From contig CALDOI010000048.1 in NCBI GenBank assembly GCA_937912115.1, positions 89,870 to 153,869 of the forward strand: a DNA stretch of 64,000 nt, in the 5' to 3' direction. Made by a program: the position numbers and the translations under genes. The number at the start of each line of letters is the position of its first letter. Position 1 is the stretch's first letter. The notes beneath the pieces were generated by a model. The model saw only the letters and a program-made list of their open reading frames with translations. It was not told where the DNA came from and searched no databases. The stretch is from an uncultured Bacteroidota bacterium. GTDB taxonomy: Bacteria; Bacteroidota; Bacteroidia; Bacteroidales; F082. Of the stretch, positions 10,425 through 54,807 are shown piece after piece.

Positions 10425-10490
10425 TTCGTAGATAAAATCAACCCAAACATTGAATTTATTTTCTATTTCACCATTATACCGTTTATTTTG
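10425..10490 (+). promoter_or_regulatory. LytTR-type direct-repeat operator and promoter, site E (CotH)
   Basis: Repeat 1 is TTCGTAGAT (10425-10433) and repeat 2 AACATTGAA (10446-10454), a 21-base period. Exactly 30 bases after the TTG of repeat 2 comes TTATTTTG (10483-10490), a -7-like box 31 bases before the CotH start. The spacer holds CCC, as in the four other sites. No -33 TTG is present, which fits an activator-dependent promoter. Confidence 0.75.
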
Positions 10491-10520
10491 TTCATTGTTA
10501 TAGAATAAATAAATTAAACC

Positions 10521-12803
10521 ATGAAGAAATATTATACTCTATTAATCATAGTGCTATTTAATATGGCATTAGCAAACGGTCAAAGTTTTTACGACATCAA
10601 CACTATCAATACAATTGAAATCACTTTCCAGGAATCCAATTGGGATCAGATACTTGATCAGTATTATGCAGCCGGAGATGAAGAAAGGCTTGTAGGCTCT
10701 GTTTCCATTAACGGACAAGTGTTTGATAGTGCGGGTATTCGCTACAAAGGCAATAGTACCTACAATGCCAACCAGGTAAAAAACCCTTTGAATATCAAAT
10801 TGGATCACATTATCGATGATCAAACAATTGAAGGTTATGGTACATTAAAGTTAGCCAATGCTGCAAAAGATCCCAGTTTCATTCGTGAAACCATGAGTTA
10901 TGAAATTGCTCGTAATTATATGGATGCAAGCCAGTCTAACTATGCAAATGTTTATATTAACGGAACTCACTTAGGACTGTATACAAGTGATCAGAGTGTA
11001 GATAAATTTTTCATGCGCACCCATTTTGGAAGTGATGAAAACACACATGTTAAAGGCGAAATTACCAGTAGTGGTGGTGGCCCACCATCGGGAGGTGTTT
11101 GGGAATACTATGGTGAGGATTCAAGTAGTTACTATAACCTATACGACATGAAATCTGATTATGGTTGGGATGAACTAATAGATTTTCTTGCTGTCCTGAA
11201 TAATAACAATGAATATGTTGATGATGTTCTTAATATAGATAGTCATCTCTGGTTTCTTGCTTTTTCAAATTTATTGGTAAATCTCGATGGTCCGATTAAT
11301 AATCCTCAGAATTATTACCTATATAAGGATGACAATGGAAAATTAAACCCAATGCCATGGGATCTGAATGAAAGCTTTGGTGTGTTTACAAGCCATCAGA
11401 CATTGGGACAGTTGGGTACTTCGCAGCTACAACAATTTAGCCCATTCGCAAATTTAAATGAGAATGATTTTCCAGTTATTAGCAAGATACTTTCAAATGA
11501 AACTTATCGTAGAGTTTATGTTGCTCATATGAAGACCATTATAGAAGAGTATTTTGAAAATGATTATTACAAAACAAGAGCTTTGGAAATTCAAGATATA
11601 ATTGATGCAGATGTGCAGGCAGATCCGAATAAATTCTATACATATTCCAACTTTACCAGTAATTTATATAATCAGGTGGGCGGAGGTCCTCAGGGAGGAA
11701 TTATTGGTATAGTTCAGTTGATGGATGCAAGAGTTAATTATTTAAATTCACTCTCCGATTTTCAGTATGATGCACCGGAAATTACCAATGTAGAGTTTAC
11801 CCCTGAAATAATCTCTCAGGGAACAGAAATTTGGTTTAATGCCAGCGTAAGCAATGTAGATGATGTATTTCTTGCTTATCGGTCAAATTCCCATGGTGTT
11901 TTTGAAAAAATGATCATGTACGACGATGGGAATCATGAAGACGGACAAGCAGGTGATGGAGTTTATGGAGTATCCTTGTTAGCAGGATCCACAGATATTC
12001 AATATTATATTTATGCAGAAAATAGCGATGCTGTTAAGTTCTCTCCTGCAAGAGCAGAATACGAGTACTATAATATAAGTGTTACTGGTAGCTTGGTAAT
12101 AAACGAGTTTATGGCAGATAATGAGAGTACTGTTGTAGATCAGGATGGTGAATATGACGACTGGATTGAGTTTTATAATAATTCAGATGTTGATATAAAC
12201 CTGGGAGGTTATTATTTATCTGATGATGGTGCTGAACCTGATCAATGGGCATTCCCTGATACAACGATAGTTGCTGGAGGATACCTGATTGTTTGGGCTG
12301 ATAAAGATGAAGACCAGGAAGGCTTGCATGCAAATTTTAAATTATCGGCTTCTGGAGAAACACTTGTGTTATCAGATAATAATCTTGGTTTGATTGATGA
12401 GGTTAGTTTTCTACAGCAAAGCCCGGATACTACCACTGGGAGATTCGAAAATGGTACAGGTGATTTTATTACCATGATGCCAACATTCGGTGCTGAAAAT
12501 ACAGATTTGTTAACAGGGTTGAATGATAATATAATAGATGCACTAAATTTTGAGTTGAAGCAGAATTATCCCAATCCATTTAATGAAAATACAAAAATAG
12601 ATTTTACTTTGGAAGAGGGAGGCTTGGCAACATTGAGAGTATTTAATACACTTGGCAAAAACATTAGCACTTTGGTCTCCTCTAATTTACCGGCAGGCAG
12701 GCATTCGTATGAATGGTATTCTGGTGATAATCCCGGAGGTCTATATTTCTATTCATTATCATTCGAAGGCAGGACAGTTGTAAAAAAGATGATAGTTCAA
12801 TAA
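10521..12803 (+). CDS. Secreted CotH kinase-family protein with lamin-tail domain and T9SS sorting signal
   Basis: 760 residues with signal peptide (cut after LANGQ). The CotH domain fills about 20-420: IEITFQESNWDQIL, the RYKGNST segment, LYTSDQSVDKFF and the metal-binding motif NPMPWDLNESFG. CotH proteins are atypical protein kinases known from Bacillus spore coats; activity here is not proven. A beta domain (about 425-530) precedes a lamin-tail domain starting LVINEFMADNES (about 530-660). The end (NYPNPFNENTKIDFTLEEGG to the C-terminus) is a type A sorting domain for secretion by the type IX system and surface attachment. It is a single-gene unit between site E and a terminator. A lipoprotein relative is at 51095-52471. 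Confidence 0.9.
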   Translation: MKKYYTLLIIVLFNMALANGQSFYDINTINTIEITFQESNWDQILDQYYAAGDEERLVGSVSINGQVFDSAGIRYKGNSTYNANQVKNPLNIKLDHIIDDQTIEGYGTLKLANAAKDPSFIRETMSYEIARNYMDASQSNYANVYINGTHLGLYTSDQSVDKFFMRTHFGSDENTHVKGEITSSGGGPPSGGVWEYYGEDSSSYYNLYDMKSDYGWDELIDFLAVLNNNNEYVDDVLNIDSHLWFLAFSNLLVNLDGPINNPQNYYLYKDDNGKLNPMPWDLNESFGVFTSHQTLGQLGTSQLQQFSPFANLNENDFPVISKILSNETYRRVYVAHMKTIIEEYFENDYYKTRALEIQDIIDADVQADPNKFYTYSNFTSNLYNQVGGGPQGGIIGIVQLMDARVNYLNSLSDFQYDAPEITNVEFTPEIISQGTEIWFNASVSNVDDVFLAYRSNSHGVFEKMIMYDDGNHEDGQAGDGVYGVSLLAGSTDIQYYIYAENSDAVKFSPARAEYEYYNISVTGSLVINEFMADNESTVVDQDGEYDDWIEFYNNSDVDINLGGYYLSDDGAEPDQWAFPDTTIVAGGYLIVWADKDEDQEGLHANFKLSASGETLVLSDNNLGLIDEVSFLQQSPDTTTGRFENGTGDFITMMPTFGAENTDLLTGLNDNIIDALNFELKQNYPNPFNENTKIDFTLEEGGLATLRVFNTLGKNISTLVSSNLPAGRHSYEWYSGDNPGGLYFYSLSFEGRTVVKKMIVQ

Positions 12804-12849
12804 CCATATTTGTCTTTATAATTTTTGTTTGTCGAATATATTTATTTTG

Positions 12850-12888
12850 TCGGGGAGATTGTTAAAAATGCAATATCCCCGATTTTTT
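12850..12888 (+). terminator. Rho-independent terminator
   Basis: TCGGGGAGATT (12850-12860) pairs with AATATCCCCGA (12872-12882) with one mismatch, followed by six T. It ends the CotH gene. Confidence 0.9.
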
Positions 12889-20339: not shown

Positions 20340-20450
20340 GGTCATGTGTTTTATTTAGAATCTATATAAATTATGATTTGGCGCATATTATATGGTTTTC
20401 AAATTCAAAATAGTAATACTTTTATACTCCAAATTTTTAATGGCATTTTT

Positions 20451-21299: not shown

Positions 21300-21315
21300 G
21301 CAAAAAATAATATAT

Positions 21316-24927: not shown

Positions 24928-24941
24928 AACAGGATTATAAC

Positions 24942-26435: not shown

Positions 26436-26470
26436 TATTGTAATTGTTTATGACTATTAATTATAACTAA

Positions 26471-27103: not shown

Positions 27104-27105
27104 TT

Positions 27106-35182: not shown

Positions 35183-35284
35183 ATGTATTAAAAAAGTTTG
35201 CAAAGATGCGAAATAATTACAATACTACTTAGACAAAGTAATTTTGTCCTTCATTCCATGTAATAATAAAAAAACAGGAGATAT

Positions 35285-37126: not shown

Positions 37127-38671
37127 TTACTTCTTAATAAAAATACCGGTTAAAACTAACTCATGATCGATTACCTTCACAAAGTAGAGGCCTGGATTCA
37201 TAAAATCAACATCCATTATCTGAGTTGTTTCATTATTTATTGCCTGATTTAAAATTAGTCTACCATCCATATTATACACTTCAAGAGTCCCTGATGAAAT
37301 GCCTTCAGCACTTACAGAAACTGTTTTAAATGAAGGATTTGGAAATATCTTCAAGTTATTATCAATGCTATTCAAGTCATTTACTCCAGCATTAATATCG
37401 GCATCCCTTACTAATCTTACATAATTAAAAATTCTGATAACATCACCTTGAGGCCCATGACCATAAGGGTAATTAGCAGGATCACCTGTTTTTGGATCAC
37501 TACGTTGTGAACCGGCACCATGAACATCCATAAGTGTATAGTTACCCGATCCGGGAGGCAATGCTTCCATCCAGCCCAGACCTTCGCCAAAACAAACGTA
37601 GGCTCCAAATCCACCTGGGGCATTTTCCTGCCAGCTTGAATGAGTCGTGCCAGTCCAGTAAAAGGGGTAGTTCGAGTTCCCTCCTTCATCAGTTATTTGA
37701 GAACAATTAAAAAGGGGATCAATGGCTGCTGAGTTTGATGTTGAAGGTGAACGTGTATAGTCTAATATGCTCTGTAACTCTTTTGCATTTGGTAAACGCC
37801 AATCAGAATAGCCCGCAATTAAATTATTTTCAGCATAACTCAGTGCACTTGCCCATAACATACCCTCACCGCTATCATCCTGAGTCCACATCAATCCAGT
37901 TGCACTATCAGTAATTGTACCATTTCCATTATTCAGGAAATCATTCACTCCATAGTTCTCATTACCACGTACATACATTACATAAAACTGCTTTTCTTCA
38001 GTTTGTCCTGGCATTGGCCCTGTTCCATATCCCTTTATACGGCCATCGGCAAAGTTTACTCCAAACATTGTTTCATCTCCCGTCATTGTTAGTCCAGCAT
38101 AAAGGGTTGAAGATGCCATTTGTGCATCAATTATTCGTTCACCTGCATTTTGATCACCATAGTTAAAATCAAAATAATCAGTATCAATAAATGGAATTAA
38201 ATCGTCTGTTGATGTACCATTATAGCCACTGGGGTCAACGCCACTAAAAATTATAAGTGAGTACATTTCTTTTATTGAAGGCAGACGCCAGTCGGTATAA
38301 CCTGCAAGGTCAAAATCAACTGCAGCAGCAACAGCCTCGTTGTATGACATCTTATCATCATAATCAATATCGCCATCACCATCCATATCAGGGCTTTTTT
38401 GCCACATTAGTCCGGTTACCAAATCGGTAACAGTTCCGTCCCCATTATTCTGGTAACTCGGCACTTTGCCTGTATAATTGGCATCCTGTCCGAAGTAAGC
38501 GTCACCTGTAACAGTGGCATTGATTTCTATAATTGTATCATAGAATTTTTGCTGATCGGTATCAACAATAGGATAAGTAATAGTGGTCTGAGCCTGTGAA
38601 GAAAAGTTACCAAGCAATAATGTAATAACAATCAATGATTGAGTAATCCGGGTTTTTAATACTATTTTCAT
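37127..38671 (-). CDS. DUF1566 (Lcl-type) secreted protein with T9SS sorting domain
   Basis: 514 residues with signal peptide. Two DUF1566/Lcl units: the first has DGTVTDLVTGLMWQ and DWRLPSIKEMYSLI (about 75-230), the second has NGTITDSATGLMWTQDD and DWRLPNAKELQSIL (about 245-410). The end, from IFPNPSFKTVSV, is a type A sorting domain, so it is exported by the type IX system and stays at the surface or is released. DUF1566 is a C-lectin-like fold of unknown ligand. It is the first gene of the unit that also encodes the LytS/LytTR pair, under site A. Confidence 0.9.
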   Translation of the reverse strand: MKIVLKTRITQSLIVITLLLGNFSSQAQTTITYPIVDTDQQKFYDTIIEINATVTGDAYFGQDANYTGKVPSYQNNGDGTVTDLVTGLMWQKSPDMDGDGDIDYDDKMSYNEAVAAAVDFDLAGYTDWRLPSIKEMYSLIIFSGVDPSGYNGTSTDDLIPFIDTDYFDFNYGDQNAGERIIDAQMASSTLYAGLTMTGDETMFGVNFADGRIKGYGTGPMPGQTEEKQFYVMYVRGNENYGVNDFLNNGNGTITDSATGLMWTQDDSGEGMLWASALSYAENNLIAGYSDWRLPNAKELQSILDYTRSPSTSNSAAIDPLFNCSQITDEGGNSNYPFYWTGTTHSSWQENAPGGFGAYVCFGEGLGWMEALPPGSGNYTLMDVHGAGSQRSDPKTGDPANYPYGHGPQGDVIRIFNYVRLVRDADINAGVNDLNSIDNNLKIFPNPSFKTVSVSAEGISSGTLEVYNMDGRLILNQAINNETTQIMDVDFMNPGLYFVKVIDHELVLTGIFIKK

Positions 38672-38699: not shown

Positions 38700-38765
38700 C
38701 AAAGAAACGAGAGATTTCAAATAGAAAAAAAAGTAATCAACAGATGGGAAGTTTTTATCAATTAG
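38700..38765 (-). promoter_or_regulatory. LytTR-type direct-repeat operator and promoter, site A
   Basis: Read leftward: repeat 1 CTAATTGAT (38757-38765), repeat 2 TCTGTTGAT (38736-38744), 21-base period with CCC in the spacer; 30 bases after the second TTG comes TTTCTTTG (38700-38707), 29 bases before the DUF1566 start. Repeat 1 is the weakest of the ten half-sites. Confidence 0.72.
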
Positions 38766-43191: not shown

Positions 43192-44958
43192 TTAAATCGA
43201 ACCCTGATTATCAGGCCAGCTTCCAAACGACTGTTTCTCAAACTTCATGCTGCCATCCTCACCTTTTAATATATTGATCCATGCCTGCCAGTTTTCATCG
43301 TCTATTTCAGGGTAATCCAAACGGTAATGACTACAACGGCTTTCTGTACGCATGATTGATGCTTTGAGTTTCATTTCAGCACTGATAATCATATTTGATG
43401 TTTCATGTGCAAGCCTGAGTTCATGCAAGTCGGCAGCCCTGAGCATTGGCATATGGTGATCTCTTAATTCTTCAATGTAAGCCAGGGCGGCTTTCATCAT
43501 ATTTTCCTTTTTTATGTATAATACAAAGTTGGGGATCATAACTCCCTGGAGGGTTTGTGTTACCCAGGCAGGGCTGTAACCTGCTTCCCGTTTTAAAGGG
43601 GCAAGGATTTCTTCCCTGATAAGGTTAATCTTTGTTTTTGAATTAACCGGCAAAGCAGTACTTTTGGAATATTCAGATGCAGCTTCAGCAGCAACAGCCC
43701 CCTGAACAGCAGATCCTGCCAATGAAGACCCAATCTGTGTATAAATTGCTCCAACCATATATGATCCCAGTGCATCGCCGGCAGCATATAACCCAGGGAT
43801 ATTTGATTCACACTTATCATTTATTGGAACTAGTCCTTCTGATTTATGAATTGCCATACCAGCAGAAGATCCACCGACAATTGTACCAGTCATTCCCGGT
43901 GGTGCTCCACCTTCTTTAGGTGGTCTTCTGTTTCTGGATTTGCTATCTGCAGAGTCAGGTTCTGCTCCATGTGGTTTTCTGTTTCTAAATTCTTCAGGAA
44001 CATAAGGGCCACCTTCAATATCATTGACTTTTTCTTCACCTGGCCTTCCCATTTTAATGGGAGAACCCATCATATAAGCTTTGTAATTCAGGTCAACACC
44101 CAGATCATGATGAATTTCAACATTTGTTGTCCCCGGTTTTCTTTCGAACATACCATGCCAGCCATCAAAGCATGCTGCTGCATTTTTAGACTGCCCCGGG
44201 TGACCATCATTCCACTCTTTACCGGTAACTTTTGCGCCGATATTGTACGCCATGATGGTACCATCGTGAGTTAGATCACAAATGGGAAAACCATTGGGTT
44301 TAAATCCACCTGCCCCGGTACAAAGGATAACACTTTTCGCATTGAAAATATGAATTTTTTCTTCACCTAAACTAAATCCGGCTGCACCTGCAATCCTTCC
44401 ATTTTCCTTGATAAGATGAGTAATTACAATCCGCTCTTTTACTGTTATATTCCTTTCTTCGATAGGTTTATTGAAACTGTTGAAATATAACGGGGAATCG
44501 AAAAACCCCCACGCTCTGAGTTCGTTTACTCTGGCAAGTGAGTGTTCAGCTAATTGCCTTGTGTAAGCCTTATTATTAGTTCCTAAGGCAGAACTTGAAA
44601 TAGCGTTTACAAAATCATCAATGCTAAAATTGGTAGTTGTTTCATCATATGCAAATATTCCTTTTGCAAAAGGAGTTTGCCCCGATGAGCCAAGGCGGCC
44701 TTTTGAAACAAGCAATACATTACTACCTGCATCGTGTGCCTTAACGGCTGCAAATAATCCGGCCATACCACTGCCAATAACAAGCACATCGGTTTCACTT
44801 TCCTGATGATCGATATTATCAATATCTATTTCCGGGTTATTTTTGGCCCAACTTGTTGAAACTCCCATTGAAACAAGGGCTGCCATTCCGGCTGCTCCAC
44901 CTGCTAATCCAAGGAAGTGGCGACGTGAAATACTACTATTTTCTTGTGAATTTCTCAT
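43192..44958 (-). CDS. Tat-exported FAD flavoprotein of the fumarate-reductase/AprA type
   Basis: 588 residues. Twin-arginine signal SRRHFLGLAGGAAGM at 11-25, so it is exported folded. FAD-binding VLVIGSGMAGLFAAVKAHDAG near 60; central VILCTGAGGF and GLYAAGDALGSYMVGAIYTQ near 400; C-terminal ESRCSHYRLDYPEIDDENW as in SdhA/AprA. The usual HGANRLGGNSL segment of SdhA/FrdA is replaced by MVGAIYTQIGSSLAGSAVQG, so the substrate is probably neither succinate nor fumarate. It ends the unit Spy-like, DUF1566, ferredoxin, membrane haem protein, flavoprotein; the gap to the membrane gene is 4 bases. Confidence 0.85.
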   Translation of the reverse strand: MRNSQENSSISRRHFLGLAGGAAGMAALVSMGVSTSWAKNNPEIDIDNIDHQESETDVLVIGSGMAGLFAAVKAHDAGSNVLLVSKGRLGSSGQTPFAKGIFAYDETTTNFSIDDFVNAISSSALGTNNKAYTRQLAEHSLARVNELRAWGFFDSPLYFNSFNKPIEERNITVKERIVITHLIKENGRIAGAAGFSLGEEKIHIFNAKSVILCTGAGGFKPNGFPICDLTHDGTIMAYNIGAKVTGKEWNDGHPGQSKNAAACFDGWHGMFERKPGTTNVEIHHDLGVDLNYKAYMMGSPIKMGRPGEEKVNDIEGGPYVPEEFRNRKPHGAEPDSADSKSRNRRPPKEGGAPPGMTGTIVGGSSAGMAIHKSEGLVPINDKCESNIPGLYAAGDALGSYMVGAIYTQIGSSLAGSAVQGAVAAEAASEYSKSTALPVNSKTKINLIREEILAPLKREAGYSPAWVTQTLQGVMIPNFVLYIKKENMMKAALAYIEELRDHHMPMLRAADLHELRLAHETSNMIISAEMKLKASIMRTESRCSHYRLDYPEIDDENWQAWINILKGEDGSMKFEKQSFGSWPDNQGSI

Positions 44959-44962
44959 TGCC

Positions 44963-45580
44963 TTATCCTAATTTCAGGTTTAAAAAATATCTCTTTAATA
45001 GAAGTAATACACCACTTACTGAAAGTAGAATTATAAATATTGACATTGCAATATCAGTATGACGTCCCAATTCTATAGCATGCCATGATGCTACAATAAT
45101 AAATACTATTGAGAGTATGCCATGAAGTAATCGCCAGCTACTAAACTTCATTGGTAGCCGGTTGCGAAATATTGAAGTAAGTCCTATTGTCAACATCAGT
45201 AGCCATGCCATGATCCCCAGAATAACTCCTGTGCTGCTGAAGGTTGTTAACAGAGTTATAAAAGCTTCCTCCGGTTCTACTCCCGATTCAAAATACCGTG
45301 GAAACACTATGAAGAAAGGATGCAACAGGAGTACTCCTGTGAAGATATAGCCAATAATTTTATGAAGATCAATAACCAATCCCATACTGTTTATATTCAG
45401 CATTTTCCTGCTATTTCGGGTTAGAAAAAATTGTCCAATCATTAATGATAATGCAATGAGGGTAACAATTGAAATTACTTCCTTTAGCACAGTACGACGA
45501 GGAAAATCCCCCAATGCCCAGAAGAGCATTGGGAGTCCAACTAACATACTAAAAACCAAAATTATATTATTCCTTTTCAT
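44963..45580 (-). CDS. Ferric-reductase-like haem b membrane protein
   Basis: 205 residues, six membrane helices. Histidines stand where haem b ligands occur in ferric-reductase-like proteins: DLHKIIGYIFTGVLLLHPFF (about 92-110) and RLLHGILSIVFIIVASWHAI (about 150-168). No FAD/NAD domain follows, so it is the membrane electron carrier only. Between the ferredoxin gene (9 bases) and the Tat flavoprotein gene (4 bases), it probably moves electrons across the inner membrane to the exported flavoprotein. Confidence 0.82.
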   Translation of the reverse strand: MKRNNIILVFSMLVGLPMLFWALGDFPRRTVLKEVISIVTLIALSLMIGQFFLTRNSRKMLNINSMGLVIDLHKIIGYIFTGVLLLHPFFIVFPRYFESGVEPEEAFITLLTTFSSTGVILGIMAWLLMLTIGLTSIFRNRLPMKFSSWRLLHGILSIVFIIVASWHAIELGRHTDIAMSIFIILLSVSGVLLLLKRYFLNLKLG

Positions 45581-45589
45581 AGCTCTCTA

Positions 45590-45805
45590 TTAACCCCATG
45601 AAACAATAACCGGAATTGATTTATCAGGTGTAATGGTAATGGCATCAACCGGGCAATACATCCTGCATAGATGGCAAATCTGGCAATCGGCAGGATATGC
45701 GATTACTGCTTTGCCGGTTCTTTTATCTAATCGTATAACATCGGTAGGACAAGTTTTTACGCATGTCCCGCAACCGATGCACCCGTTTATACTATTGATA
45801 GCCAT
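45590..45805 (-). CDS. Dicluster [4Fe-4S] ferredoxin, AprB-like
   Basis: 71 residues. Two full cluster motifs: CIGCGTCVKTCPTDVIRL and CQICHLCRMYCPVDAI. No signal peptide; it may act in the cytoplasm or travel with the Tat flavoprotein as a hitchhiker. The small dicluster protein next to an AprA/SdhA-type flavoprotein recalls AprAB. Starts 32 bases after the DUF1566 stop, so the unit is continuous. Confidence 0.9.
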   Translation of the reverse strand: MAINSINGCIGCGTCVKTCPTDVIRLDKRTGKAVIAYPADCQICHLCRMYCPVDAITITPDKSIPVIVSWG

Positions 45806-45837
45806 TTTGATTAATTTATGATTGCTTACACAAATAT

Positions 45838-47295
45838 TTACTCCAAATTAAGTATATCTAACAGAGTTTGCGCCTGCTCTTCAGTAATTACAATATCATT
45901 TGAGGCAAAATTAGCTACAAGTTCAGAAGCTGTAGGTGTAGGAGGGCCTCCGACTATTGATTCCAGCTCTTCTGCAGTTACAGTTATACCTATGGTTGCC
46001 AGGTATTCTACTCCGGAAGTAAAATCCGGACCACCGCCGTTACCGCCGCCACCACCTATGTCACCATCGGGGAATACAACTACACGATCAAGGTTAATAC
46101 AATTAGGATTGCCATCAGGTGTTTCGGCCACATCTCCACTACGAACCAATCGCACGTAGTTGTAACGATGAATTTCAGGATTCAATTCCGAAAAGTACTC
46201 TTCTGATTTAGGACCAAAACATATCGATCCTGATCCATGTAAGTCGTTGCCATCAGGGTCTGTGTTATAGCCTGCAGCAAGGAACCAGGCATAAACAGTA
46301 CCTCCATCAACAACTTCGTCACTACCTTCCAGCGGATTGGATGTGCTCGACCAATAAAATGGATAATCGACCTGACCCTTTATATTAGTAAGTTCTGTAA
46401 GGTTAAAAAATGTTGTGTTCATTGAAGGGAAAACACCGGAGTAATCTGCGATACTTTGCAATTCTTTGATATTAGGCAGGCGCCAGTCATCGTAACCATA
46501 CAAGGTGGCGTTTTCAGCATAAGCCAGGGCATCTTCCCAAAGGAATCCCTCGCCGCTATCATCTTGCGACCACATCAAACCGGTAGCATTATCGGTAACT
46601 GTTCCATCATTGTTGTCAACAAAATCGTTGAAGCCATAAGTTTCAGTACCTCGTACAGCCCGTACAAATCTATTACCACTCATCGCTTTAATGTGTCCTG
46701 TCCAATCGTTAACAATAAATGAGGGCTCACCCATCACCTGCTCGTTCTGATATTCGCTTTCTACGAGGTAACGAGTAGCAGTCCATGAATGATGCATCGC
46801 AAGTTCTGAGCCATCACCAACCAGGTAAAAGTAGTCGGTATTGACCCATGGCCAACCCATTGAAAAATCCCTAATAGACCACAACTCTTTTACTGTAGGC
46901 AGACGCCAGTCGCTGTAGCCTCCGGTAGTTAATGTATCGCAATAGCTTGAGGCATCAGCCCATGACATGGCAAAAGTTGATACGGACTGTGTCCATGTCA
47001 AATTAGTAACATTGTCGGTGATGGCGCCATCACCGTTGTCGGTGTAGCTGGGGGAATTTCCAGTGTATTGCGCATCCTGTCCGTAGTACGCTTCTCCTTC
47101 TGTAGGAGGGGTGATTTGTGTGAGATTATCGTAAGTTAATCCCTGGTATGTATCCACAATGGGATAGGTGAGGCTAGCGTTAGTATTGATATCATCAACG
47201 TTATCTTTTTTGCAACCACTCAATAACGAAGTCGCCACCAATAAAAAAGTAAATAAAACTACTGCTAATGATTTTGGTGCATGAACTGATTTCAT
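45838..47295 (-). CDS. DUF1566 (Lcl-type) lipoprotein with Gly-rich linker
   Basis: 485 residues. Lipobox LLSGC followed by KKDN, so it is a lipoprotein. Two DUF1566 units (DGAITDNVTNLTWTQ with DWRLPTVKELWSI; DGTVTDNATGLMWSQDD with DWRLPNIKELQSI). Then comes a Gly-rich linker (about 400-415) and an extra C-terminal helical segment FTSGVEYLATIGITVTAEEL and on, absent in the other three copies. No T9SS tail. It lies between the Spy-like gene (61 bases) and the ferredoxin gene (32 bases), the only copy tied to redox genes. Confidence 0.88.
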   Translation of the reverse strand: MKSVHAPKSLAVVLFTFLLVATSLLSGCKKDNVDDINTNASLTYPIVDTYQGLTYDNLTQITPPTEGEAYYGQDAQYTGNSPSYTDNGDGAITDNVTNLTWTQSVSTFAMSWADASSYCDTLTTGGYSDWRLPTVKELWSIRDFSMGWPWVNTDYFYLVGDGSELAMHHSWTATRYLVESEYQNEQVMGEPSFIVNDWTGHIKAMSGNRFVRAVRGTETYGFNDFVDNNDGTVTDNATGLMWSQDDSGEGFLWEDALAYAENATLYGYDDWRLPNIKELQSIADYSGVFPSMNTTFFNLTELTNIKGQVDYPFYWSSTSNPLEGSDEVVDGGTVYAWFLAAGYNTDPDGNDLHGSGSICFGPKSEEYFSELNPEIHRYNYVRLVRSGDVAETPDGNPNCINLDRVVVFPDGDIGGGGGNGGGPDFTSGVEYLATIGITVTAEELESIVGGPPTPTASELVANFASNDIVITEEQAQTLLDILNLE

Positions 47296-47356
47296 AATTT
47301 TAAATTTAAAATGAATATTTTATTTTTTTACAAATGAATTACGTTACTATGGAACG

Positions 47357-47761
47357 CTATCTCTCTCTTTGTGGTTGTTGTTTACTTTGTTCTTTCAAAT
47401 AAGCTTCGTACTTGCTAGTTTGCTCCTTGGTTAGTTCAGCCTTTACCTGTTTTTCAAAAGCTTTTTTTTGCGTTTCCATTTCTTCCCTGTCGGGGCGGCT
47501 ATTGCCTGAAGTTTCTTCTTTCATCTCTGCAAAATGCGCTTTATACAGTTCAAGTACTTTTGTTTCCTGGGCTGGACTCAATGCAATTTCATCGACCATA
47601 TCGCTAACCATTGTTTCAATTTGTTTGTCGGTAGGAATAGAAGGTGGGCCCTGCTTGCCGCCTTTTTGGCCGCCCGGTTGAGCTTGAATCAGGGTTACAC
47701 TTAAAATTACTGTCATAACGACGAGTAATAAACGAATTGTTATTTTGAATTTTGTTTTCAT
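47357..47761 (-). CDS. Spy/LTXXQ-like periplasmic protein
   Basis: 134 residues from the ATG at 47761; signal peptide ends TLIQAQ. The mature part is helical, with LSPAQETKVLELYKAHF near 68 and LTKEQTSKYEAYLKEQ near 111, the LTXXQ pattern of Spy/CpxP proteins, which are ATP-independent chaperones or metal/stress sensors in the periplasm. The N-terminal linker is rich in Gly, Pro and Gln. It is the first gene after site B, so it leads the unit with the DUF1566 and redox genes. Confidence 0.78.
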   Translation of the reverse strand: MKTKFKITIRLLLVVMTVILSVTLIQAQPGGQKGGKQGPPSIPTDKQIETMVSDMVDEIALSPAQETKVLELYKAHFAEMKEETSGNSRPDREEMETQKKAFEKQVKAELTKEQTSKYEAYLKEQSKQQPQRER

Positions 47762-47794: not shown

Positions 47795-47860
47795 CAAAGG
47801 AACAGCCGATTTGATTAAGAAAAAAAAGTATTCAATGGATTGGGTGATTTTATCAACGAA
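47795..47860 (-). promoter_or_regulatory. LytTR-type direct-repeat operator and promoter, site B
   Basis: Read leftward: repeat 1 TTCGTTGAT (47852-47860), repeat 2 TCCATTGAA (47831-47839), 21-base period with CCC in the spacer; 30 bases after the second TTG comes TTCCTTTG (47795-47802), 34 bases before the Spy-like start. Confidence 0.78.
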
Positions 47861-48059: not shown

Positions 48060-49244
48060 TCATTGTACATCACGTACAAGTCGAACATAGTTGTAATAAC
48101 GTTCACCACCTTCGCCCAGCGGACCACCTTCATATTTGGTATCGAAACGAACACCCCCGGCGCCATGAAAATCCTGTCCTTCACCATCAACAGCCATTCC
48201 AAAGGCAACATACCAGGCATAGTAATATGGTTCGCCTGAAGTAAAAGATGCTGATGTACTTGTCCAGTAGTATCCGTAGTCATCGTTACCTGCTTCGTTA
48301 ATTATTGGTGTACAAGTAAAAAACGCAGGATCGATGGCCGGGCCAACTTTTAATTCATCAGTAGCACTGGGTGAGTATCCATAATCGACAATACTTTGAA
48401 GTTCCTTCACATTGGGTAATCTCCAGTTGGAATGTCCTGCAAATTCACTGTTTTCTGCATAAGTCAATGCAGCAACCCAGTATATTCCTTCACCATTATC
48501 ATCCTGCATCCACATCAATCCGGTTGAATTATCTGTAATGGTTCCATCACCATTATCCACATACTCGTTAATACCGTAATCATCACCGCGAACGGCTCTA
48601 ACGTATTTTCCGCCAACAGGTCCCGTAGCTTCTGCTGAGTATGCTTTAATATGACCTGTTACATGATTTACACCCATTGCTGAATTTGAACCGCCTTCAA
48701 CTGTAACACCTACATAGTAATTACTGGACCAAAATTGCTCATCCTTAGTCACATGACCGCTCGCAAGGTTGAAATAATCTGTGTTGAGATATGGCCAGCC
48801 TGAACCAAAATCACTGATTGAGTACAGCTCTTTACAGCTTGGCATACGCCAATCATCATAGCCATTTAATTCAAGGCTCTCGCAATATTCTACAGCTTCA
48901 GCCCATGTATAATCATCTGAGGAAGGTATCTGCTGCCACATTAACCCAGTATTCTGATCAGTGATGGTTCCGTCTTCATTATCCTGATACGACATTGTTT
49001 CACCTACTAGATAATTTGCATCCTGTCCGTAAAGTTCATCACCAGGATTAAGTCCTGTAATAACATTACCATCGGCATCGTAAGTAGCAGTCTGGCCGGT
49101 TGCAATAAGCAGATAGTTGTTTACTTCAGGTACTATTCCGTTGTTATCATCACCGGCATCATCATCTTTTTTACATCCTGTGAAAGTAACCATAAGTGCC
49201 ATGGTTAATACAGGGATCATTTTCAATAAGTTCTCTGGTTTCAT
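48060..49244 (-). CDS. DUF1566 (Lcl-type) lipoprotein, tandem paralogue
   Basis: 394 residues. Signal and lipobox VTFTGC followed by KKDD. Two DUF1566 units: DGTITDQNTGLMWQQ with DWRMPSCKELYSI, then DGTITDNSTGLMWMQDD with NWRLPNVKELQSI; it ends NYVRLVRDVQ without a sorting tail. It is very close in sequence to the gene just upstream (GSNSAMGVNHVTGHIKAYSA versus GSNAAFGVNHVTGHIKAYAA), a recent duplication with a different anchor. 89 bases separate the two, so they may share the site C promoter. Confidence 0.9.
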   Translation of the reverse strand: MKPENLLKMIPVLTMALMVTFTGCKKDDDAGDDNNGIVPEVNNYLLIATGQTATYDADGNVITGLNPGDELYGQDANYLVGETMSYQDNEDGTITDQNTGLMWQQIPSSDDYTWAEAVEYCESLELNGYDDWRMPSCKELYSISDFGSGWPYLNTDYFNLASGHVTKDEQFWSSNYYVGVTVEGGSNSAMGVNHVTGHIKAYSAEATGPVGGKYVRAVRGDDYGINEYVDNGDGTITDNSTGLMWMQDDNGEGIYWVAALTYAENSEFAGHSNWRLPNVKELQSIVDYGYSPSATDELKVGPAIDPAFFTCTPIINEAGNDDYGYYWTSTSASFTSGEPYYYAWYVAFGMAVDGEGQDFHGAGGVRFDTKYEGGPLGEGGERYYNYVRLVRDVQ

Positions 49245-49333
49245 AATATACTGTTATTAAATTATTTGAAGCAAAAATATTATAGTATGGTGTGTTCCTT
49301 AGTGGTGAAAATTTTGAGAATGCCCTGTTCGAT

Positions 49334-50725
49334 CTATTGTTTGATTATAGTTTTTGTATGAACTGCAAAATTAGCCGTGATTACCCTTATGAAATAAACT
49401 CCATTGTTCAGATGGCTGATATCCAGAGTTATATTTTGCTGATTCGATTCTTCTTTTACTAATAGGACTCCGGTAATACTATAAACATAAGCTACAAGTA
49501 TTTCATCATCACCAACTATGGTTAATTGATTTTTTGCAGGATTTGGATAAATCTTTAAACTGTTATTATCCATAGTTGACCCTTCGATACCAGTTGTGCC
49601 AATATTCCTTACCAGCCTTACATAATTGTAATAACGCTCACCATCTTCACCCTGAGGACCGCCTTCATATTTTGTATCGAAACGTACTCCACCTGCTCCG
49701 TGGAAATCCAGTCCTTCGTTGTTTACTGCACGACCAAAAGCAACATACCATCCATAATAATAAGGTTCGCTTGCACGGAAAGGTGCAGATGTGCCGGTCC
49801 AGTAATATGCATAATCGTCATCACCAGCTTCATTGATTATTGGAGTACAATTGAAAATCGGATCAATAGCCGGCCCAACTTTATCAGGATCGGTAGCACT
49901 TGGTGAGTATCCGTAATCAACGATACTATGAAGTTCTTTAACATTTGGCAACCTCCAGTCGTCATGACCTGCAAATTCGCTGCTCTCAGCATATATAAGG
50001 GCTGCTTTCCAGTCAATCCCATCTTCACTGTCATTTTGCGACCACATTAATCCTGTAGCATTGTCAGAGATAGTTCCATCACCATTATCAACATACTCAT
50101 TAACTCCGTATGCATTACCGCGAACAGCCCTGACATATTTACCTCCTACAGGGCCTCCTGAATTTGCGGCATATGCTTTAATATGCCCTGTTACATGATT
50201 TACACCAAAAGCTGCATTTGAACCTCCTTCAACAGTAACACCAACATAAAAGTTGCTTGACCAATATTGCTCATCTTTGGTTATTTGTCCACTGGCAAGT
50301 GTGAAATAATCTGTATTAAGATAAGGCCACCCTACATTAAAATCACTAATTGAAAATAATTCTTTCAGGCTTGGCATTCTCCAGTCATCATATCCTGCGA
50401 ATACAAGGTTTTCACAATAATCAACAGCTTGTTGCCAGATAAAATTCTGTGAATTTGGTACCTGTTGCCACATCAACCCTGTATTTTCATCAGAAATGGT
50501 CCCATCGCTATTATCAGCAAATGAGAACTCAAGGCTTGAGTATTGTGCATCCTGACCATATAGTGAATCACCAGGCGAAGGACATGTAATAGTATTTCCG
50601 TCCTCATCGTAGCACTGGATTTGTCCTGTTTCAACTACTTTGTACTCTTGTGCTGTAAGAGTAAAATTAAGGAGAACTATTACGCAAAGGAAAAACAGTT
50701 TTGAAAGTAAATTAGCCCTTTTCAT
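49334..50725 (-). CDS. DUF1566 (Lcl-type) protein with T9SS sorting domain, tandem paralogue
   Basis: 463 residues from the ATG at 50725, where the signal peptide starts (MKRANLLSKLFFLCVIVLL, cut near TLTAQ). Two DUF1566 units as in the neighbour, then a type A sorting domain from IYPNPAKNQLTIVG to the end. So the same two-unit domain is made once as a T9SS cargo and once as a lipoprotein. First gene after site C. Confidence 0.9.
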   Translation of the reverse strand: MKRANLLSKLFFLCVIVLLNFTLTAQEYKVVETGQIQCYDEDGNTITCPSPGDSLYGQDAQYSSLEFSFADNSDGTISDENTGLMWQQVPNSQNFIWQQAVDYCENLVFAGYDDWRMPSLKELFSISDFNVGWPYLNTDYFTLASGQITKDEQYWSSNFYVGVTVEGGSNAAFGVNHVTGHIKAYAANSGGPVGGKYVRAVRGNAYGVNEYVDNGDGTISDNATGLMWSQNDSEDGIDWKAALIYAESSEFAGHDDWRLPNVKELHSIVDYGYSPSATDPDKVGPAIDPIFNCTPIINEAGDDDYAYYWTGTSAPFRASEPYYYGWYVAFGRAVNNEGLDFHGAGGVRFDTKYEGGPQGEDGERYYNYVRLVRNIGTTGIEGSTMDNNSLKIYPNPAKNQLTIVGDDEILVAYVYSITGVLLVKEESNQQNITLDISHLNNGVYFIRVITANFAVHTKTIIKQ

Positions 50726-50753: not shown

Positions 50754-50819
50754 CAAACATATGGCTTTGATAATGTGCAGAAAAATAAAATCAATGTTTG
50801 GTGGGATATTATCAACGAA
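50754..50819 (-). promoter_or_regulatory. LytTR-type direct-repeat operator and promoter, site C
   Basis: Read leftward: repeat 1 TTCGTTGAT (50811-50819), repeat 2 AACATTGAT (50790-50798), 21-base period with CCC in the spacer; 30 bases after the second TTG comes TATGTTTG (50754-50761), a perfect TAnnTTTG, 29 bases before the start. The best-conserved of the five. Confidence 0.82.
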
Positions 50820-50918: not shown

Positions 50919-51012
50919 TCAAACTTGTTTATTTTCATAGATATCTCAACGCAGTGGTGAAGTTAGACAAACTGGGTTTTATTTCGTTACACTTTTGAAA
51001 CCTGAGACTAAT
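50919..51012. other. Gene-free DNA between site C and the CotH terminator
   Basis: With the site C region and the palindrome it makes a gap of 369 bases between 50725 and 51095. I see nothing further in it. Confidence 0.4.
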
Positions 51013-51049
51013 AAAAAAACCGGTATAATATCCGAAGATATTTTCCCGG
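51013..51049 (-). terminator. Rho-independent terminator of the VTC-CotH operon
   Basis: On the minus strand CCGG, then AATATC-TTCG-GATATT with a stable TTCG loop, then CCGG and seven T. It lies 45 bases after the CotH stop. Confidence 0.9.
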
Positions 51050-51094
51050 CCAGCTTAACTAAAACCGCAATAAACAAAAACTCTTCTATGATTG

Positions 51095-52471
51095 CTAATT
51101 AACGTACGACAACACTGCACTATTTCTTGATTGCACATGTGTTTTCAAGGTGGCAACTGCCTGATCGAAGTTTGCGTCATAATTAATATATGTATAACCC
51201 GATTCTTCTGCGTAAGCATAATCCTTTAAAAGTTCATAATATCCGGCATAGGTTGTTACCATATCGGAGGGGATAAAAACCTCGTCAATAAATTGTTTTG
51301 CATAAACTTTATATTTTTCTTCATACTCATCAACATCCATCAGGTATCTGATTAATGGCCAGTTGTTTCCAACCTCACTTAACGACAAACTTAAGGCGTT
51401 ACCCATTTTGCCATTTTGTAAAGCTTCGTTATTATCCCAGGGAATCCATGTAAGCAGATTATTATCAGGATTATTATACAAATAGTAGTTGTGTGTCATC
51501 TTACCATATGTATCCCAGTTTTGCATAACAGTATTTGCAGCAAGCCATTTCAAAAATCCATCCACATTTAAAACAGTATTTAGGTTAGATTTCCATTTTT
51601 CAATATCCGTTGTTCTATCAGAACTATTAATGATATTATAAAGTGATTCCACATCTGAATAATCGTTCTCTGCTTCGTTGCTTTTCTTTTCCATTTCCGA
51701 TTCATCAAATGTACCTGAAGCAAAACTGGCGGCATCACCATCAGGTTTATAAAGGTTTCCTTCATCGTTGTTGAACTGGCTTTCCAGCACAGTGTCATCA
51801 ACCTCTTCAACCAAAGTATACACTCCATAGTATTGTGGCCCTGATCCATTATCAATGTAAACAACACAAAACGTAGTTTGGGATGATGCCAAACCGAAAT
51901 TACGGAATAAATCGGCACCAACTTTTTCACGCATAAGCGAAGCATCATCAAAGTTATTGTTAAGATTGAGTTGTTTAAAACCATAAAACCTTTGATTCTC
52001 GAGTTCGGGGTAATCATCTTCAAATTCATCGAAGTCAAGCTTGAAGGATAGTTTATTGTTACCGGATTGGTATGCAGATTGAAGACTGGAATTACCTTTG
52101 TAGCGTACCCCTACATTGTACCAATGTGTATCATTGAATTTAAATGAACAAGGAACCCAAACCATATCATAGTCACTCGAACCCACACCTCCACCTCCGG
52201 GGCCACCCGAACTGCCTAATTGATCATCCAAATCCGACTGCATTATTGACCAATTTGTACTATTTATCACAATATCGAACCTCAAAACAGTATTTTGCTC
52301 AAAAACTACCTGATAATCAGGATCAACATTATTGCTGTGTGTGATTTCTGTCCAGTCGGCATAATCTGAAATCTCTCCCGTTATTTCATCAGTAATATCA
52401 GTTTTTCGACAACTGATTACAATAATCATTATTAAAATGATAATTGAATATCCTAAAATATGTCTTTTCAT
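51095..52471 (-). CDS. CotH kinase-family lipoprotein
   Basis: 458 residues from the ATG at 52471. Lipobox IVISC followed by RK, so lipidated. CotH domain from about 65: RFDIVINSTNWSIM, the RYKGNSSLQSAY segment, KLDFDEFEDD, YYGVYTLVEEVDD, NLYKPDGD and the metal-binding LLTWIPWDNNEAL near 330. A Gly-rich loop (SSGGPGGGGVGSS) sits near 90. Last gene of the VTC-DUF4956-DUF2490-CotH unit, 107 bases after DUF2490, with an AT-rich hairpin in that gap. In other bacteria CotH genes often stand with VTC and DUF4956 genes. The kinase target is unknown. Confidence 0.9.
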   Translation of the reverse strand: MKRHILGYSIIILIMIIVISCRKTDITDEITGEISDYADWTEITHSNNVDPDYQVVFEQNTVLRFDIVINSTNWSIMQSDLDDQLGSSGGPGGGGVGSSDYDMVWVPCSFKFNDTHWYNVGVRYKGNSSLQSAYQSGNNKLSFKLDFDEFEDDYPELENQRFYGFKQLNLNNNFDDASLMREKVGADLFRNFGLASSQTTFCVVYIDNGSGPQYYGVYTLVEEVDDTVLESQFNNDEGNLYKPDGDAASFASGTFDESEMEKKSNEAENDYSDVESLYNIINSSDRTTDIEKWKSNLNTVLNVDGFLKWLAANTVMQNWDTYGKMTHNYYLYNNPDNNLLTWIPWDNNEALQNGKMGNALSLSLSEVGNNWPLIRYLMDVDEYEEKYKVYAKQFIDEVFIPSDMVTTYAGYYELLKDYAYAEESGYTYINYDANFDQAVATLKTHVQSRNSAVLSYVN

Positions 52472-52578
52472 GTGTTTATAATTTATGTATTTATCGGTCA
52501 CATGGAACTCTCATGCAAAAAATAATCATGCCTTTGTGTGTAATAAATGATGATTTTTTACATGTTTGTTTCATCTCT

Positions 52579-53226
52579 CTAAAGTTTTATTTTATAACCT
52601 AGACTAAAAATATGGTTGTTTTTATCTTTCTGAAGATAATAATCAAACCTGTAGCTTGCGCCTATATAGTTTTTCTTAAACAGCTTATAGTCAAGACCGA
52701 GCTTATACCTCACTTTATACATGCTATTATCCGACAGCTGGTGAAACAACTCTGCACTCAGAGTAGGTGTTAACTTACAGTCTTTTATGTCGTAACCAAG
52801 GGCAGCCTTATATCTTAAATATTTGTTATCAGAATCATCATCGGCATAATTAGTATATCGAAGCATTAATTCTGGCATAAACCTGTCGAAATCCTTCTTT
52901 AGAGTAGCACCAAATTCATATCTATGCAGGTATTCAGTATCTTTTTCATCTCTTGGGTTAACAATAAAGCGATAGCCTCCACTTAAGTAAAGCAATTTTA
53001 ATGGTTTGTAAACAATCTCGGTTTCCAACAAGTATCTGTCAACTGAGAAATCATCCTTAAAGCGAGCCTCTGGAGTTATGTTTATTTTAAACTTTTTAAT
53101 TGGTTTTAACGATAGCTTTACCGATGTGCGGTATTCGAAATCGTTTACAACATCCTGTGCGGATACTTGTATCACAATAATAACTAAGCATAGTGCCAAT
53201 AAATATGTTTTTCTAATATTCTTCAT
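52579..53226 (-). CDS. DUF2490 outer-membrane barrel-like protein
   Basis: 215 residues from the ATG at 53226; signal peptide ends IQVSAQ. Beta-strand pattern with alternating hydrophobic and charged residues (ITPEARFKDDFSVDRYLLE, YLSGGYRFIVNP, GLDYKLFKKNYIGASYRF) and a typical end FSLGYKIKL. DUF2490 proteins are predicted small outer-membrane barrels. Third gene of the VTC unit, 14 bases after DUF4956; it may be the outer-membrane part of that system. Confidence 0.8.
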   Translation of the reverse strand: MKNIRKTYLLALCLVIIVIQVSAQDVVNDFEYRTSVKLSLKPIKKFKINITPEARFKDDFSVDRYLLETEIVYKPLKLLYLSGGYRFIVNPRDEKDTEYLHRYEFGATLKKDFDRFMPELMLRYTNYADDDSDNKYLRYKAALGYDIKDCKLTPTLSAELFHQLSDNSMYKVRYKLGLDYKLFKKNYIGASYRFDYYLQKDKNNHIFSLGYKIKL

Positions 53227-53239
53227 GTTCTTACTCCAA

Positions 53240-53932
53240 TTATTTTGTTCCATTTACATTAAAATAAAGTCTGATTATAGCTATATCTTTCAAGAAATCT
53301 ATCCTTTTAATTTCATAGCGAACGATATCAATTCCAGTTCTTTTTTTAAGATCAGCCAATAACACTTCCTCGCTCATTGTGTGGATATTTTCTATCTTTT
53401 CATAAATTAATTTGATAGATTGTTCCTGTTTAAGCATAAGTTGTTTTTCCAGGATCCAAAGTCCAAAAACAATCGCAGTATTTGTAAATACCAGTTCTGC
53501 ATAACTCACCTTTTTATTCGCAAGGGCGTTTATTACTGAAATTCCAATGATTACAAATAGATAGGTCATTTCCTTAATTGGAATAGCATCAGTACGATAT
53601 CTTATAATTCCGAAAATGGCAAACAGTCCTAGAGCAAATCCCAATTCCAATTTTACATTATTAAGCAATGAGCTTAGAAAGAAAACGATAACACCAATGG
53701 CTATGTAGCTAAAATAGAAATCTTTACGCTTACTATTTTTGGCATAGATAAAATGAACAACAATAAAAATAAGTAGGGTGTTTAAAGTGAACCTGACCAA
53801 CAGATCACTGAAGTCATCCATATTAATAAGTTTAATCCCTAAAAAACGGAATTGATCTTCCCAGGTAATAATTTCGGAAATGGCTCCGGTAGTTGAGTTT
53901 ACAATATCAGTTGTAACAAATGTCTCTAACAT
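53240..53932 (-). CDS. DUF4956 membrane protein, VTC partner
   Basis: 230 residues with four membrane helices (about 40-130) and a soluble C-terminal domain (about 145-230: LIYEKIENIHTMSEEVLLADL, then a ferredoxin-like beta-alpha end DIVRYEIKRIDFL). The segment GLFAIFGIIRYRTDAIPIKEM is characteristic of DUF4956. These proteins stand beside VTC-domain genes in many bacteria, which suggests a membrane complex, but function is unproven. 6 bases after the VTC gene. Confidence 0.88.
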   Translation of the reverse strand: MLETFVTTDIVNSTTGAISEIITWEDQFRFLGIKLINMDDFSDLLVRFTLNTLLIFIVVHFIYAKNSKRKDFYFSYIAIGVIVFFLSSLLNNVKLELGFALGLFAIFGIIRYRTDAIPIKEMTYLFVIIGISVINALANKKVSYAELVFTNTAIVFGLWILEKQLMLKQEQSIKLIYEKIENIHTMSEEVLLADLKKRTGIDIVRYEIKRIDFLKDIAIIRLYFNVNGTK

Positions 53933-53938
53933 ATCTTT

Positions 53939-54703
53939 CTAATTTATAGTATATAATTCTCTTTTTGTACTAATTACTTTTTCAATCTTTCTAATCTTAT
54001 TTTTAAAAGCATTCCGCTTAAGCTCACTATCAGTTACCGTACGTCCGATACAATATTTACTAAAGCCTGCGATTTTTAACCGATGATCTCGTAATGCCAA
54101 TTTAAGTGCTGATATTTCTGAATTCCCCTCCGATTTTATCTCAACTATAACCAATTGGTCAAGAGCAACACATTTGTTTTCTTTTTTGTATTGAAGATTC
54201 AGATCTACTGTGCAACGCTCTTTAAAATTTTTATTTACCAGAGTTAAACGGGTAAAATTATTTTGCAAAGATAATTGTAAATCATTGGCACCATAAGGTG
54301 TGTTTGATTGTATAAAGAGATCTTCCTTTTCCGTAAACTTATTACTCGTTACATCTGTTGGTATCCGTTTTTTTATTGTACGCCCCTTATTACTTTTAAA
54401 TTTTATTTCAAGAAACCCAATCCCTGAATTCAAGTATATTCTTTTACGTATCTTATATCGGTTCAGTTTTCCATTATGGTGGGCGGTAAACATGTCATTT
54501 CTCAATGTGTCGAAATATGTTGTTGAATAGGACATTTGATAATTTCCATCAATTTGCAATATATAATATTGATTATCTATTGAATCGAGTAAGGATTGCA
54601 ATTCAGATACTGAAAACCAATATTTATGATCAGTTCTATTCATCAGTTTCACTTTATCCATTTCCTGGAGACTTATAATTTCAAACGATTCAGTATTCAA
54701 CAT
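53939..54703 (-). CDS. VTC-domain polyphosphate-polymerase-like protein
   Basis: 254 residues from the ATG at 54703. The VTC tunnel residues known from yeast Vtc4 are visible: TDHKYWF (Lys27), TTYFDT (61-66), NRYKIRKRIY (81-90), FLEIKFKSNKGR (97-108) and KKRI, then VDLNLQYK and VIVEIKSEG in the second half. Yeast Vtc4 makes polyphosphate from ATP in this fold. No signal peptide or membrane helix: it is cytoplasmic, probably docked to DUF4956. First gene after site D. Confidence 0.9.
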   Translation of the reverse strand: MLNTESFEIISLQEMDKVKLMNRTDHKYWFSVSELQSLLDSIDNQYYILQIDGNYQMSYSTTYFDTLRNDMFTAHHNGKLNRYKIRKRIYLNSGIGFLEIKFKSNKGRTIKKRIPTDVTSNKFTEKEDLFIQSNTPYGANDLQLSLQNNFTRLTLVNKNFKERCTVDLNLQYKKENKCVALDQLVIVEIKSEGNSEISALKLALRDHRLKIAGFSKYCIGRTVTDSELKRNAFKNKIRKIEKVISTKRELYTIN

Positions 54704-54741
54704 AACTACCTTTCTAGTACTTATTAAGTTATTATTTAATG

Positions 54742-54807
54742 CAAAGACACACCATAAATCAATAGTTACCAAATAAAATCAATGTTTAGGGATATTTTAT
54801 CTACGAA
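54742..54807 (-). promoter_or_regulatory. LytTR-type direct-repeat operator and promoter, site D
   Basis: Read leftward: repeat 1 TTCGTAGAT (54799-54807), repeat 2 AACATTGAT (54778-54786), 21-base period with CCC in the spacer; 30 bases after the second TTG comes TGTCTTTG (54742-54749), 39 bases before the VTC start. This site alone also has a TTTG at -33-like spacing. Confidence 0.78.

What the first reader, a model, noticed from the sequence alone, without database searches (positions are those of the whole stretch)
10425..54807. Five promoters share an exact LytTR-type operator layout: a surface/redox regulon
Seen directly: five sites (10425-10490 on +; 38700-38765, 47795-47860, 50754-50819, 54742-54807 on -) each hold two 9-mers near TTCGTTGAT/AACATTGAT with a 21-bp period, CCC in the spacer, and exactly 30 bp from the second TTG to an 8-mer ending TTTG, 29-39 bp before the start codon. 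Five of five with identical spacing is unlikely by chance. Known: LytTR regulators bind 9-bp direct repeats (near [TA][AC][CA]GTTN[AG][TG]) with 12-13 bp between. The half-sites match at 6-8 of 9 positions. A LytTR regulator is encoded at 35285. Inference: it activates CotH, four DUF1566 genes, a VTC operon and a flavin redox operon.
Basis: partly seen in the sequence, partly recalled or inferred. Interest (0 to 1): 0.95.

Follow-up and report, generated by a model that had tools for sequence, protein, structure and literature searches.

The report
LytTR surface-gene switch in Bacteroidota
Five promoters in this uncultured Bacteroidota genome carry the same pair of 9-base repeats at a fixed distance from the RNA polymerase box, similar pairs recur beside related regulator genes in other genomes of the phylum, and they are likely the landing sites of a sensor-regulator pair predicted to switch on cell-surface genes.

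Summary
All five sites have the stated geometry and are the only strong ones in the 3.9-Mb genome (52.7-63.3 bits, next 16.0). Site B precedes the operon Lcl_C - histidine kinase - LytTR, so the regulator likely controls itself. Among 119 genomes (own included), 8 have strong sites; 7 of these, and none of the other 111, carry a close kinase orthologue. With an operator model that ignores the -7 box, 25 of 26 hits in the window and 20 fetched stretches have TTTG exactly 37 bp after the second TTG. Close VTC orthologues have the site in 7 of 7 loci, distant VTC homologues in 0 of 23. Further out the layout weakens but persists: 25 of 80 named LytTR loci have hits, with TTTG at 37 or 38 bp in 22 of 28. 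Recurrent targets: T9SS-tagged Lcl_C and CotH proteins, VTC operons, Spy-like genes, the kinase-LytTR operon itself. The operator abuts the -33 element of promoters with a weak -7, which fits activation. Binding, activation and signal are untested. LytTR binding to direct repeats is known; my searches listed no Bacteroidota LytTR operator.

The parts
10425..10490 (+). site A: two 9-mers 21 bp apart, TTTG in phase; before the CotH + lamin-tail + T9SS-tail gene 10521-12803
   Evidence: orthologous site in G002, G003, G005, G007 and G022
10521..12803 (+). CotH kinase / lamin-tail protein with T9SS sorting tail
   Evidence: Pfam
38700..38765 (-). site B: before Lcl_C - histidine kinase - LytTR; predicted autoregulation
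   Evidence: lowest leave-one-out score, 18.6, still above every non-site
37127..38671 (-). Lcl_C (DUF1566) protein with T9SS tail
   Evidence: Pfam
35995..37101 (-). histidine kinase (His_kinase, PF06580) with a Pro/His-rich stretch ahead of the kinase part
35285..35998 (-). response regulator with LytTR DNA-binding domain (the predicted activator)
   Evidence: Pfam; alignment
47795..47860 (-). site C: before Spy-like - Lcl_C - ferredoxin-like - ferric-reductase-like - FAD protein
43192..47761 (-). gene run behind site C: Spy-like 47357-47761, Lcl_C 45838-47295, ferredoxin-like about 45590-45805 (read by eye), Ferric_reduct 44963-45580, FAD protein 43192-44958
   Evidence: Spy-like: only weak DUF4890, below its cut-off
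50754..50819 (-). site D: before two Lcl_C genes
48060..50725 (-). two Lcl_C genes: 49334-50725 (T9SS tail) and 48060-49244
   Evidence: Pfam; start codon by reading
54742..54807 (-). site E: before VTC - DUF4956 - DUF2490 - CotH
   Evidence: site at all 7 close VTC orthologues examined
51095..54703 (-). VTC 53939-54703, DUF4956 53240-53932, DUF2490 52579-53253, CotH 51095-52501
   Evidence: Pfam

Best explanation
The five repeat pairs are likely operators of the LytTR response regulator encoded at 35285-35998, which would bind them as a head-to-tail dimer just upstream of the -33 element and switch on five promoters of secreted and envelope genes, its own operon among them. Shown: the repeats, their 21-bp period, the fixed 37-bp distance to the -7 TTTG, their presence before the same genes in close relatives, and their co-occurrence with this kinase-LytTR pair. 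Inferred: the kinase senses an unknown envelope signal and phosphorylates the regulator; the dimer occupies about -70 to -41 and contacts sigma or RNA polymerase, making up for a -7 box that rarely has the A of TAnnTTTG; site B gives positive autoregulation.
For: Own genome: 5 strong sites, next 16.0 bits; leave-one-out. Site B precedes the operon that holds the regulator. Co-occurrence: sites in 8 of 119 genomes, kinase orthologue (E<=1e-100) in 7 of these 8 and 0 of 111 others, Fisher p 1.4e-10. 25 of 26 operator-only hits above 15 bits have TTTG at +37. VTC: site at 7 of 7 close orthologues, 0 of 23 distant homologues. LytTR loci of the order: 30 hits >=14 against 1 in reversed sequence. 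Loci fetched by LytTR protein alone: 28 hits, TTTG at 37 in 18 and at 38 in 4. Without any motif: repeats of period 21 with TTTG in phase in 38 of 654 regions, 0-9 at 12 other periods, 1 of 115 control regions. Geometry and half-site agree with published LytTR sites (PMC2766830 passages; PMC4227749 passages).
Against: No binding or expression data. The E cut-offs for co-occurrence were set after seeing the tables; G081, whose kinase is just beyond (3.2e-98, 48% identity), has no strong site, and G022 has sites but no close kinase in its assembly (its contig ends inside the Lcl gene). Hits >=14 were found in only 16 of 35 LytTR-chosen loci of the order and 25 of 80 named LytTR loci. Period 21 alone is as common in control regions (23 of 115) as near LytTR genes (126 of 654). 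The genome has 11 further LytTR matches. In F. johnsoniae a -33 motif is much less evident (PMC6847099 passage).
Confidence: 0.84

Rival explanations
1. The operators are read by a different LytTR regulator of the same genome; the one at 35285 is only a member of the regulon.
For: Twelve LytTR matches in the genome. In G050 and G059 another, divergent kinase-LytTR pair (28-35% identity) lies next to the VTC operon.
Against: Strong sites go with orthologues of this pair; sites precede the operon of this pair in the window, G002, G003, G005, G007, G050 and G059; that divergent pair is not beside the sites in the window, G002, G003, G005 or G007 as fetched.
Confidence: 0.08
2. The protein binds these sites but represses; release on signal opens the promoters.
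For: Some LytTR proteins repress (AgrA at bsaA; PMC4227749 passage).
Against: The operator lies upstream of -33 at a fixed distance, and the -7 has TA in only 3 of 24 sites, which fits activation at weak promoters. This is an inference.
Confidence: 0.05
3. The repeats are not regulator sites but a general upstream element of promoters in these bacteria.
For: Repeats of period 21 occur in 23 of 115 control upstream regions, more than at other periods there.
Against: In controls the fixed distance to TTTG is missing (1 of 115 against 38 of 654, Fisher p 0.02); strong sites are confined to 8 of 119 genomes and to five promoters of the own genome.
Confidence: 0.03

Closest known systems
AgrA of Staphylococcus aureus (LytTR activator at P2 and P3)
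   Same: LytTR domain; dimer on two direct repeats upstream of weak promoters, centre about -60 (PMC4227749 passages); here the midpoint is about -55. The window's LytTR domain aligns weakly with AgrA chains (E about 0.009).
   Different: Different sigma factor and promoter boxes; different half-site letters; targets are T9SS-tagged surface proteins and a VTC operon; no autoinducer genes noticed.
SilA of streptococci and the published LytTR rule (9- or 10-bp repeats, 12- or 11-bp spacer)
   Same: 9-mers with 12 bp between, i.e. the same 21-bp period; activation of a small local regulon (PMC2766830 passages).
   Different: Bacteroidota -33/-7 promoter; recurrent 37-bp distance to the -7 TTTG; no peptide signal known here.
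CotH - polyphosphate polymerase - DUF4956 accessory genes of Gram-positive Pel clusters
   Same: The same three families side by side (PMC7112168 passages); the E operon is VTC-DUF4956-DUF2490-CotH.
   Different: Pel genes were not looked for here; LytTR control is not in the passages seen.

Membership tests
LytTR-family response regulator | receiver domain plus LytTR DNA-binding domain | tested here: met
   LytTR 78.2 bits (cut-off 22.6), Response_reg 62.3 bits (cut-off 30.2)
LytTR-family response regulator | partner kinase of the His_kinase (PF06580) type in the same operon | tested here: met
   86.4 bits (cut-off 25.2), genes overlap by 4 bp
LytTR operator | two direct 9-bp repeats with about 12 bp between | tested here: met
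   five of five sites in the window; rule from PMC2766830 passages
LytTR operator | half-site near the published consensus | tested here: met
LytTR operator | bound by the LytTR protein | not testable with these tools
   needs EMSA or footprint
Bacteroidota housekeeping promoter | -33 TTTG and -7 TAnnTTTG | tested here: inconclusive
   TTTG of the -7 in 24 of 24 sites (sites kept because they had it), TA in 3 of 24; -33 TTTG in 9 of 24, TT in 24 of 24; consensus from PMC6847099 passages

The most novel reading that the evidence does not exclude
A phylum-wide Bacteroidota LytTR operator code: kinase-LytTR pairs of this clade, from Marinilabiliales to Prevotella, Flammeovirga and Ulvibacterium, switch on a surface module (Lcl_C, CotH, VTC-DUF4956, Cthe_2159) from promoters with two half-sites 21 bp apart and 37-38 bp from the -7 TTTG, and residues 157-158 of the LytTR protein (R/E, S/E, H/E, R/D) read the variable half-site letters (TT, CT, G-first, TC), so that operators of many uncharacterised regulators can be predicted from protein sequence.
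Probability: 0.33. Interest if true: 0.78.

Novelty: new variant of a known kind. Interest (0 to 1): 0.62.

Why it matters
It would give a LytTR operator for Bacteroidota with a rule (21-bp period, 37 bp to the -7) by which regulons can be read from genomes. It would tie little-understood CotH, VTC-DUF4956, DUF1566 and Cthe_2159 surface genes of environmental and gut Bacteroidota to one predicted sensory switch, and it offers a test of how a beta-type DNA-binding domain drives the divergent Bacteroidota RNA polymerase.

Tried and rejected
Chance match: rejected by leave-one-out and the own-genome scan. Period 21 as a diagnostic on its own: rejected, since control regions show it too (23 of 115); only period plus distance to TTTG separates them. 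Recognition code: over 51 labelled loci residue 158 ranks first for the second letter and residue 157 only fourth by z for the first; D158 goes with C in 4 of 4 loci (two are the same contig) and E158 with C in 3 of 47; H157 goes with G first in 3 of 3. Kinship confounds this. A strict test (same two letters in both repeats) was thin: 86 of 120 distinct proteins had no qualifying site; R/E gave TT 12, S/E gave CT 7 and TT 4, N/E gave CT 2 and TT 1, H/E gave GT 1, R/D gave TC 1, K/D none of 9. One strong false positive: G242 (35.2 bits), antisense within a 995-aa ORF, no LytTR match at E<=1e-60 and no TTTG in phase. Weak model hits in many genomes (35 of 119 at E<=0.01; 55 of 393 at E<=0.001) were not followed up one by one. 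Papers: searches for LytTR with Bacteroidetes/direct repeat, Bacteroid/regulon, DUF1566, Prevotella/Cthe2159, and CotH kinase with polyphosphate listed nothing on this regulon (titles and abstract starts, with passages of PMC4227749, PMC2766830, PMC7112168, PMC6847099, PMC9723704 and PMC6222199); the last proved to concern an OmpR-family regulator and was not used. No structure prediction, viral-contig scan or homologous-protein search was run.

Full report
What is there. Five sites sit at the stated places. Each has two 9-mers of the type TTCGTTGAT / AACATTGAT, 21 bp apart, and TTTG starting 37 bp after the second TTG. Start codons lie 28-38 bp after TTTG; for C, D and E I read them at 47761, 50725 and 54703, downstream of the starts that the ORF list chose. 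The five are the only strong sites of the 3.9-Mb genome: 52.7-63.3 bits against 16.0 for the next of 47 matches. They trained that model, so I left each out in turn: every one still ranks fourth or fifth of 127,928 window positions, behind only other sites, at 18.6-42.3 against at most 13.5 for a non-site.

Genes. A precedes a CotH + lamin-tail protein with a T9SS tail. B precedes Lcl_C (T9SS tail) - histidine kinase - LytTR regulator. C precedes a Spy-like gene (my label; weak DUF4890, below cut-off), Lcl_C, a ferredoxin-like gene (by eye), a ferric-reductase-like membrane protein and an FAD protein. D precedes two Lcl_C genes. E precedes VTC - DUF4956 - DUF2490 - CotH.

Close relatives. Among 119 genomes, the own one included, the five-site model at E<1e-4 finds 8: G000, G002, G003, G005, G007, G022, G050 and G059. 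A kinase orthologue at E<=1e-100 is in 7, all among those 8 (Fisher p 1.4e-10). I set both cut-offs after seeing the tables. Exceptions: G022 has sites but no close kinase; its contig ends inside the Lcl gene, where the kinase would follow. G081 has a kinase just beyond the cut-off (3.2e-98, 48% identity) and no strong site. I scanned the window and 20 fetched stretches with an operator model that leaves out the -7: of 26 hits above 15 bits, 25 have TTTG exactly at +37, and the other lies inside an ORF. Sites stand before the same gene classes though gene order differs; in G050 and G059 the VTC operon and the kinase operon are on different contigs and both have a site.

Gene control. Of 33 VTC matches in the same genomes I examined the 30 that came as loci. 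The 7 close orthologues (56-100% identity; six of them from genomes with the kinase, plus G022) all have the site at VTC; the 23 distant homologues (36-46%) have none above 10 bits. Some of those 23 genomes carry more distant LytTR relatives, so this separates close from distant systems rather than presence from absence of any LytTR.

Order. A 24-site model and the LytTR protein were run over the same 393 genomes. I read 40 loci: 35 chosen for LytTR orthologues and 5 for model hits alone. They hold 30 hits >=14 bits against 1 in reversed sequence, and 24 against 0 at >=16. Of the 30, 22 lie in 16 of the 35 LytTR-chosen loci, so 19 of 35 show none. TTTG is at +37 in 20 of 30 (15 of the 22); 6 of the other 10 have ATTG, TTTA or TTCG there; 2 of 30 lie inside ORFs.

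Named genomes. 80 loci were fetched by LytTR protein alone. 25 of 80 have hits >=14, 28 hits in all; TTTG is at 37 in 18 and at 38 in 4. At least four of the 80 are contigs already seen under G-handles, judged by length (L248, L261, L266, L273); the hit in L248 is one of the 24 training sites and that in L261 repeats L195. Without these two, 16 of 26 have TTTG at 37 and 4 at 38. Loci with hits include Draconibacterium, Saccharicrinis, Flammeovirga, Ulvibacterium, Bacteroides sp. 224 and several Prevotella. In three of three such loci tested (L274, L278, L321) the gene between operator and kinase is a Cthe_2159 carbohydrate-binding protein.

Test without a motif. I counted 8-mer repeats (7 of 8 identical) in upstream regions by period and by distance to TTTG. 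In 654 regions of 119 LytTR-related loci, period 21 with TTTG in phase occurs in 38 regions of 33 loci; the 12 other periods from 15 to 27 give 0-9; 115 control regions give 1 (Fisher p 0.02). Against my reading: period 21 alone is as common in controls (23 of 115) as here (126 of 654). Among 66 sites found by a looser rule that allowed 36, 37 or 38 bp, TTTG is at 37 in 53, at 38 in 10 and at 36 in 3.

Both copies drift together. Some loci carry GTGA-, CTGA- or TCGA-type half-sites in both copies, as expected if one protein reads both. Residues 157-158 of the LytTR protein tend to follow: R/E with TT, S/E with CT, H/E with G first, R or K with D and TC (51 loci). Kinship confounds this and a strict test was thin (see Tried and rejected). 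In the HMMER alignment with AgrA these residues lie in the loop that holds an AgrA histidine; that this is H169, a DNA contact, is recalled.

Promoter anatomy. With the -7 G at -5 (PMC6847099, passages), the operator covers about -70 to -41, midpoint about -55. TT at the -33 element is in 24 of 24 sites, TTTG in 9 of 24, with a 20-nt spacer; the -7 has TA in only 3 of 24. The same paper finds a -33 motif much less evident genome-wide. AgrA works from about -60 at promoters with suboptimal spacing (PMC4227749, passages). Activation is therefore the likely sign; it is inferred.

Known and new. LytTR regulators on 9-bp repeats with a 12-bp spacer are known (PMC2766830, passages), and CotH - polyphosphate polymerase - DUF4956 is a known accessory module of Gram-positive Pel clusters (PMC7112168, passages). 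My searches listed no account of a Bacteroidota LytTR operator or of this regulon; most subscription papers are not held. What the kinase senses is unknown; its Pro/His-rich stretch and the Spy-like genes suggest an envelope or metal signal, which is a guess.

Noticed in passing
L274, L278, L281, L296 (Prevotella-type loci), operator: By eye, an inverted repeat (AGCCGG..TTCG / CGA..CCGGCT) followed by T's spans box 2 and the stretch behind it, like a terminator embedded in the operator.
   Followed up: no
control loci L328-L347: 8-mer direct repeats of period 21 are more frequent than those of other periods in upstream regions far from the LytTR loci (23 of 115); cause unknown.
   Followed up: partly
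L210, upstream of the VTC gene at 5878 (G352): Two half-sites 42 bp apart (hand count), i.e. twice the usual period (sequence).
   Followed up: no
L107:11660-13503 and L110:9198-11041: In G050 and G059 a second, divergent kinase-LytTR pair (28-35% identity) lies directly upstream of the VTC operon.
   Followed up: no
window 20373-27828: Cytochrome c gene, a 1203-aa ORF and a respiratory nitrate reductase beta-type protein: a likely nitrate-reductase-type cluster, conserved in G002 and G003.
   Followed up: no
window 32684-35203: A TonB-dependent-type outer-membrane protein gene follows the LytTR gene by 81 bp and is next to it in G002 and G007; it may share the transcript.
   Followed up: no
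window 35995-37101: The kinase carries a Pro/His-rich stretch just ahead of its last predicted membrane segment, also Pro-rich in most of the 6 orthologues aligned.
   Followed up: no
L214:9204 (G242): A 35-bit operator match without any expected context: antisense inside an ORF, no TTTG in phase.
   Followed up: partly
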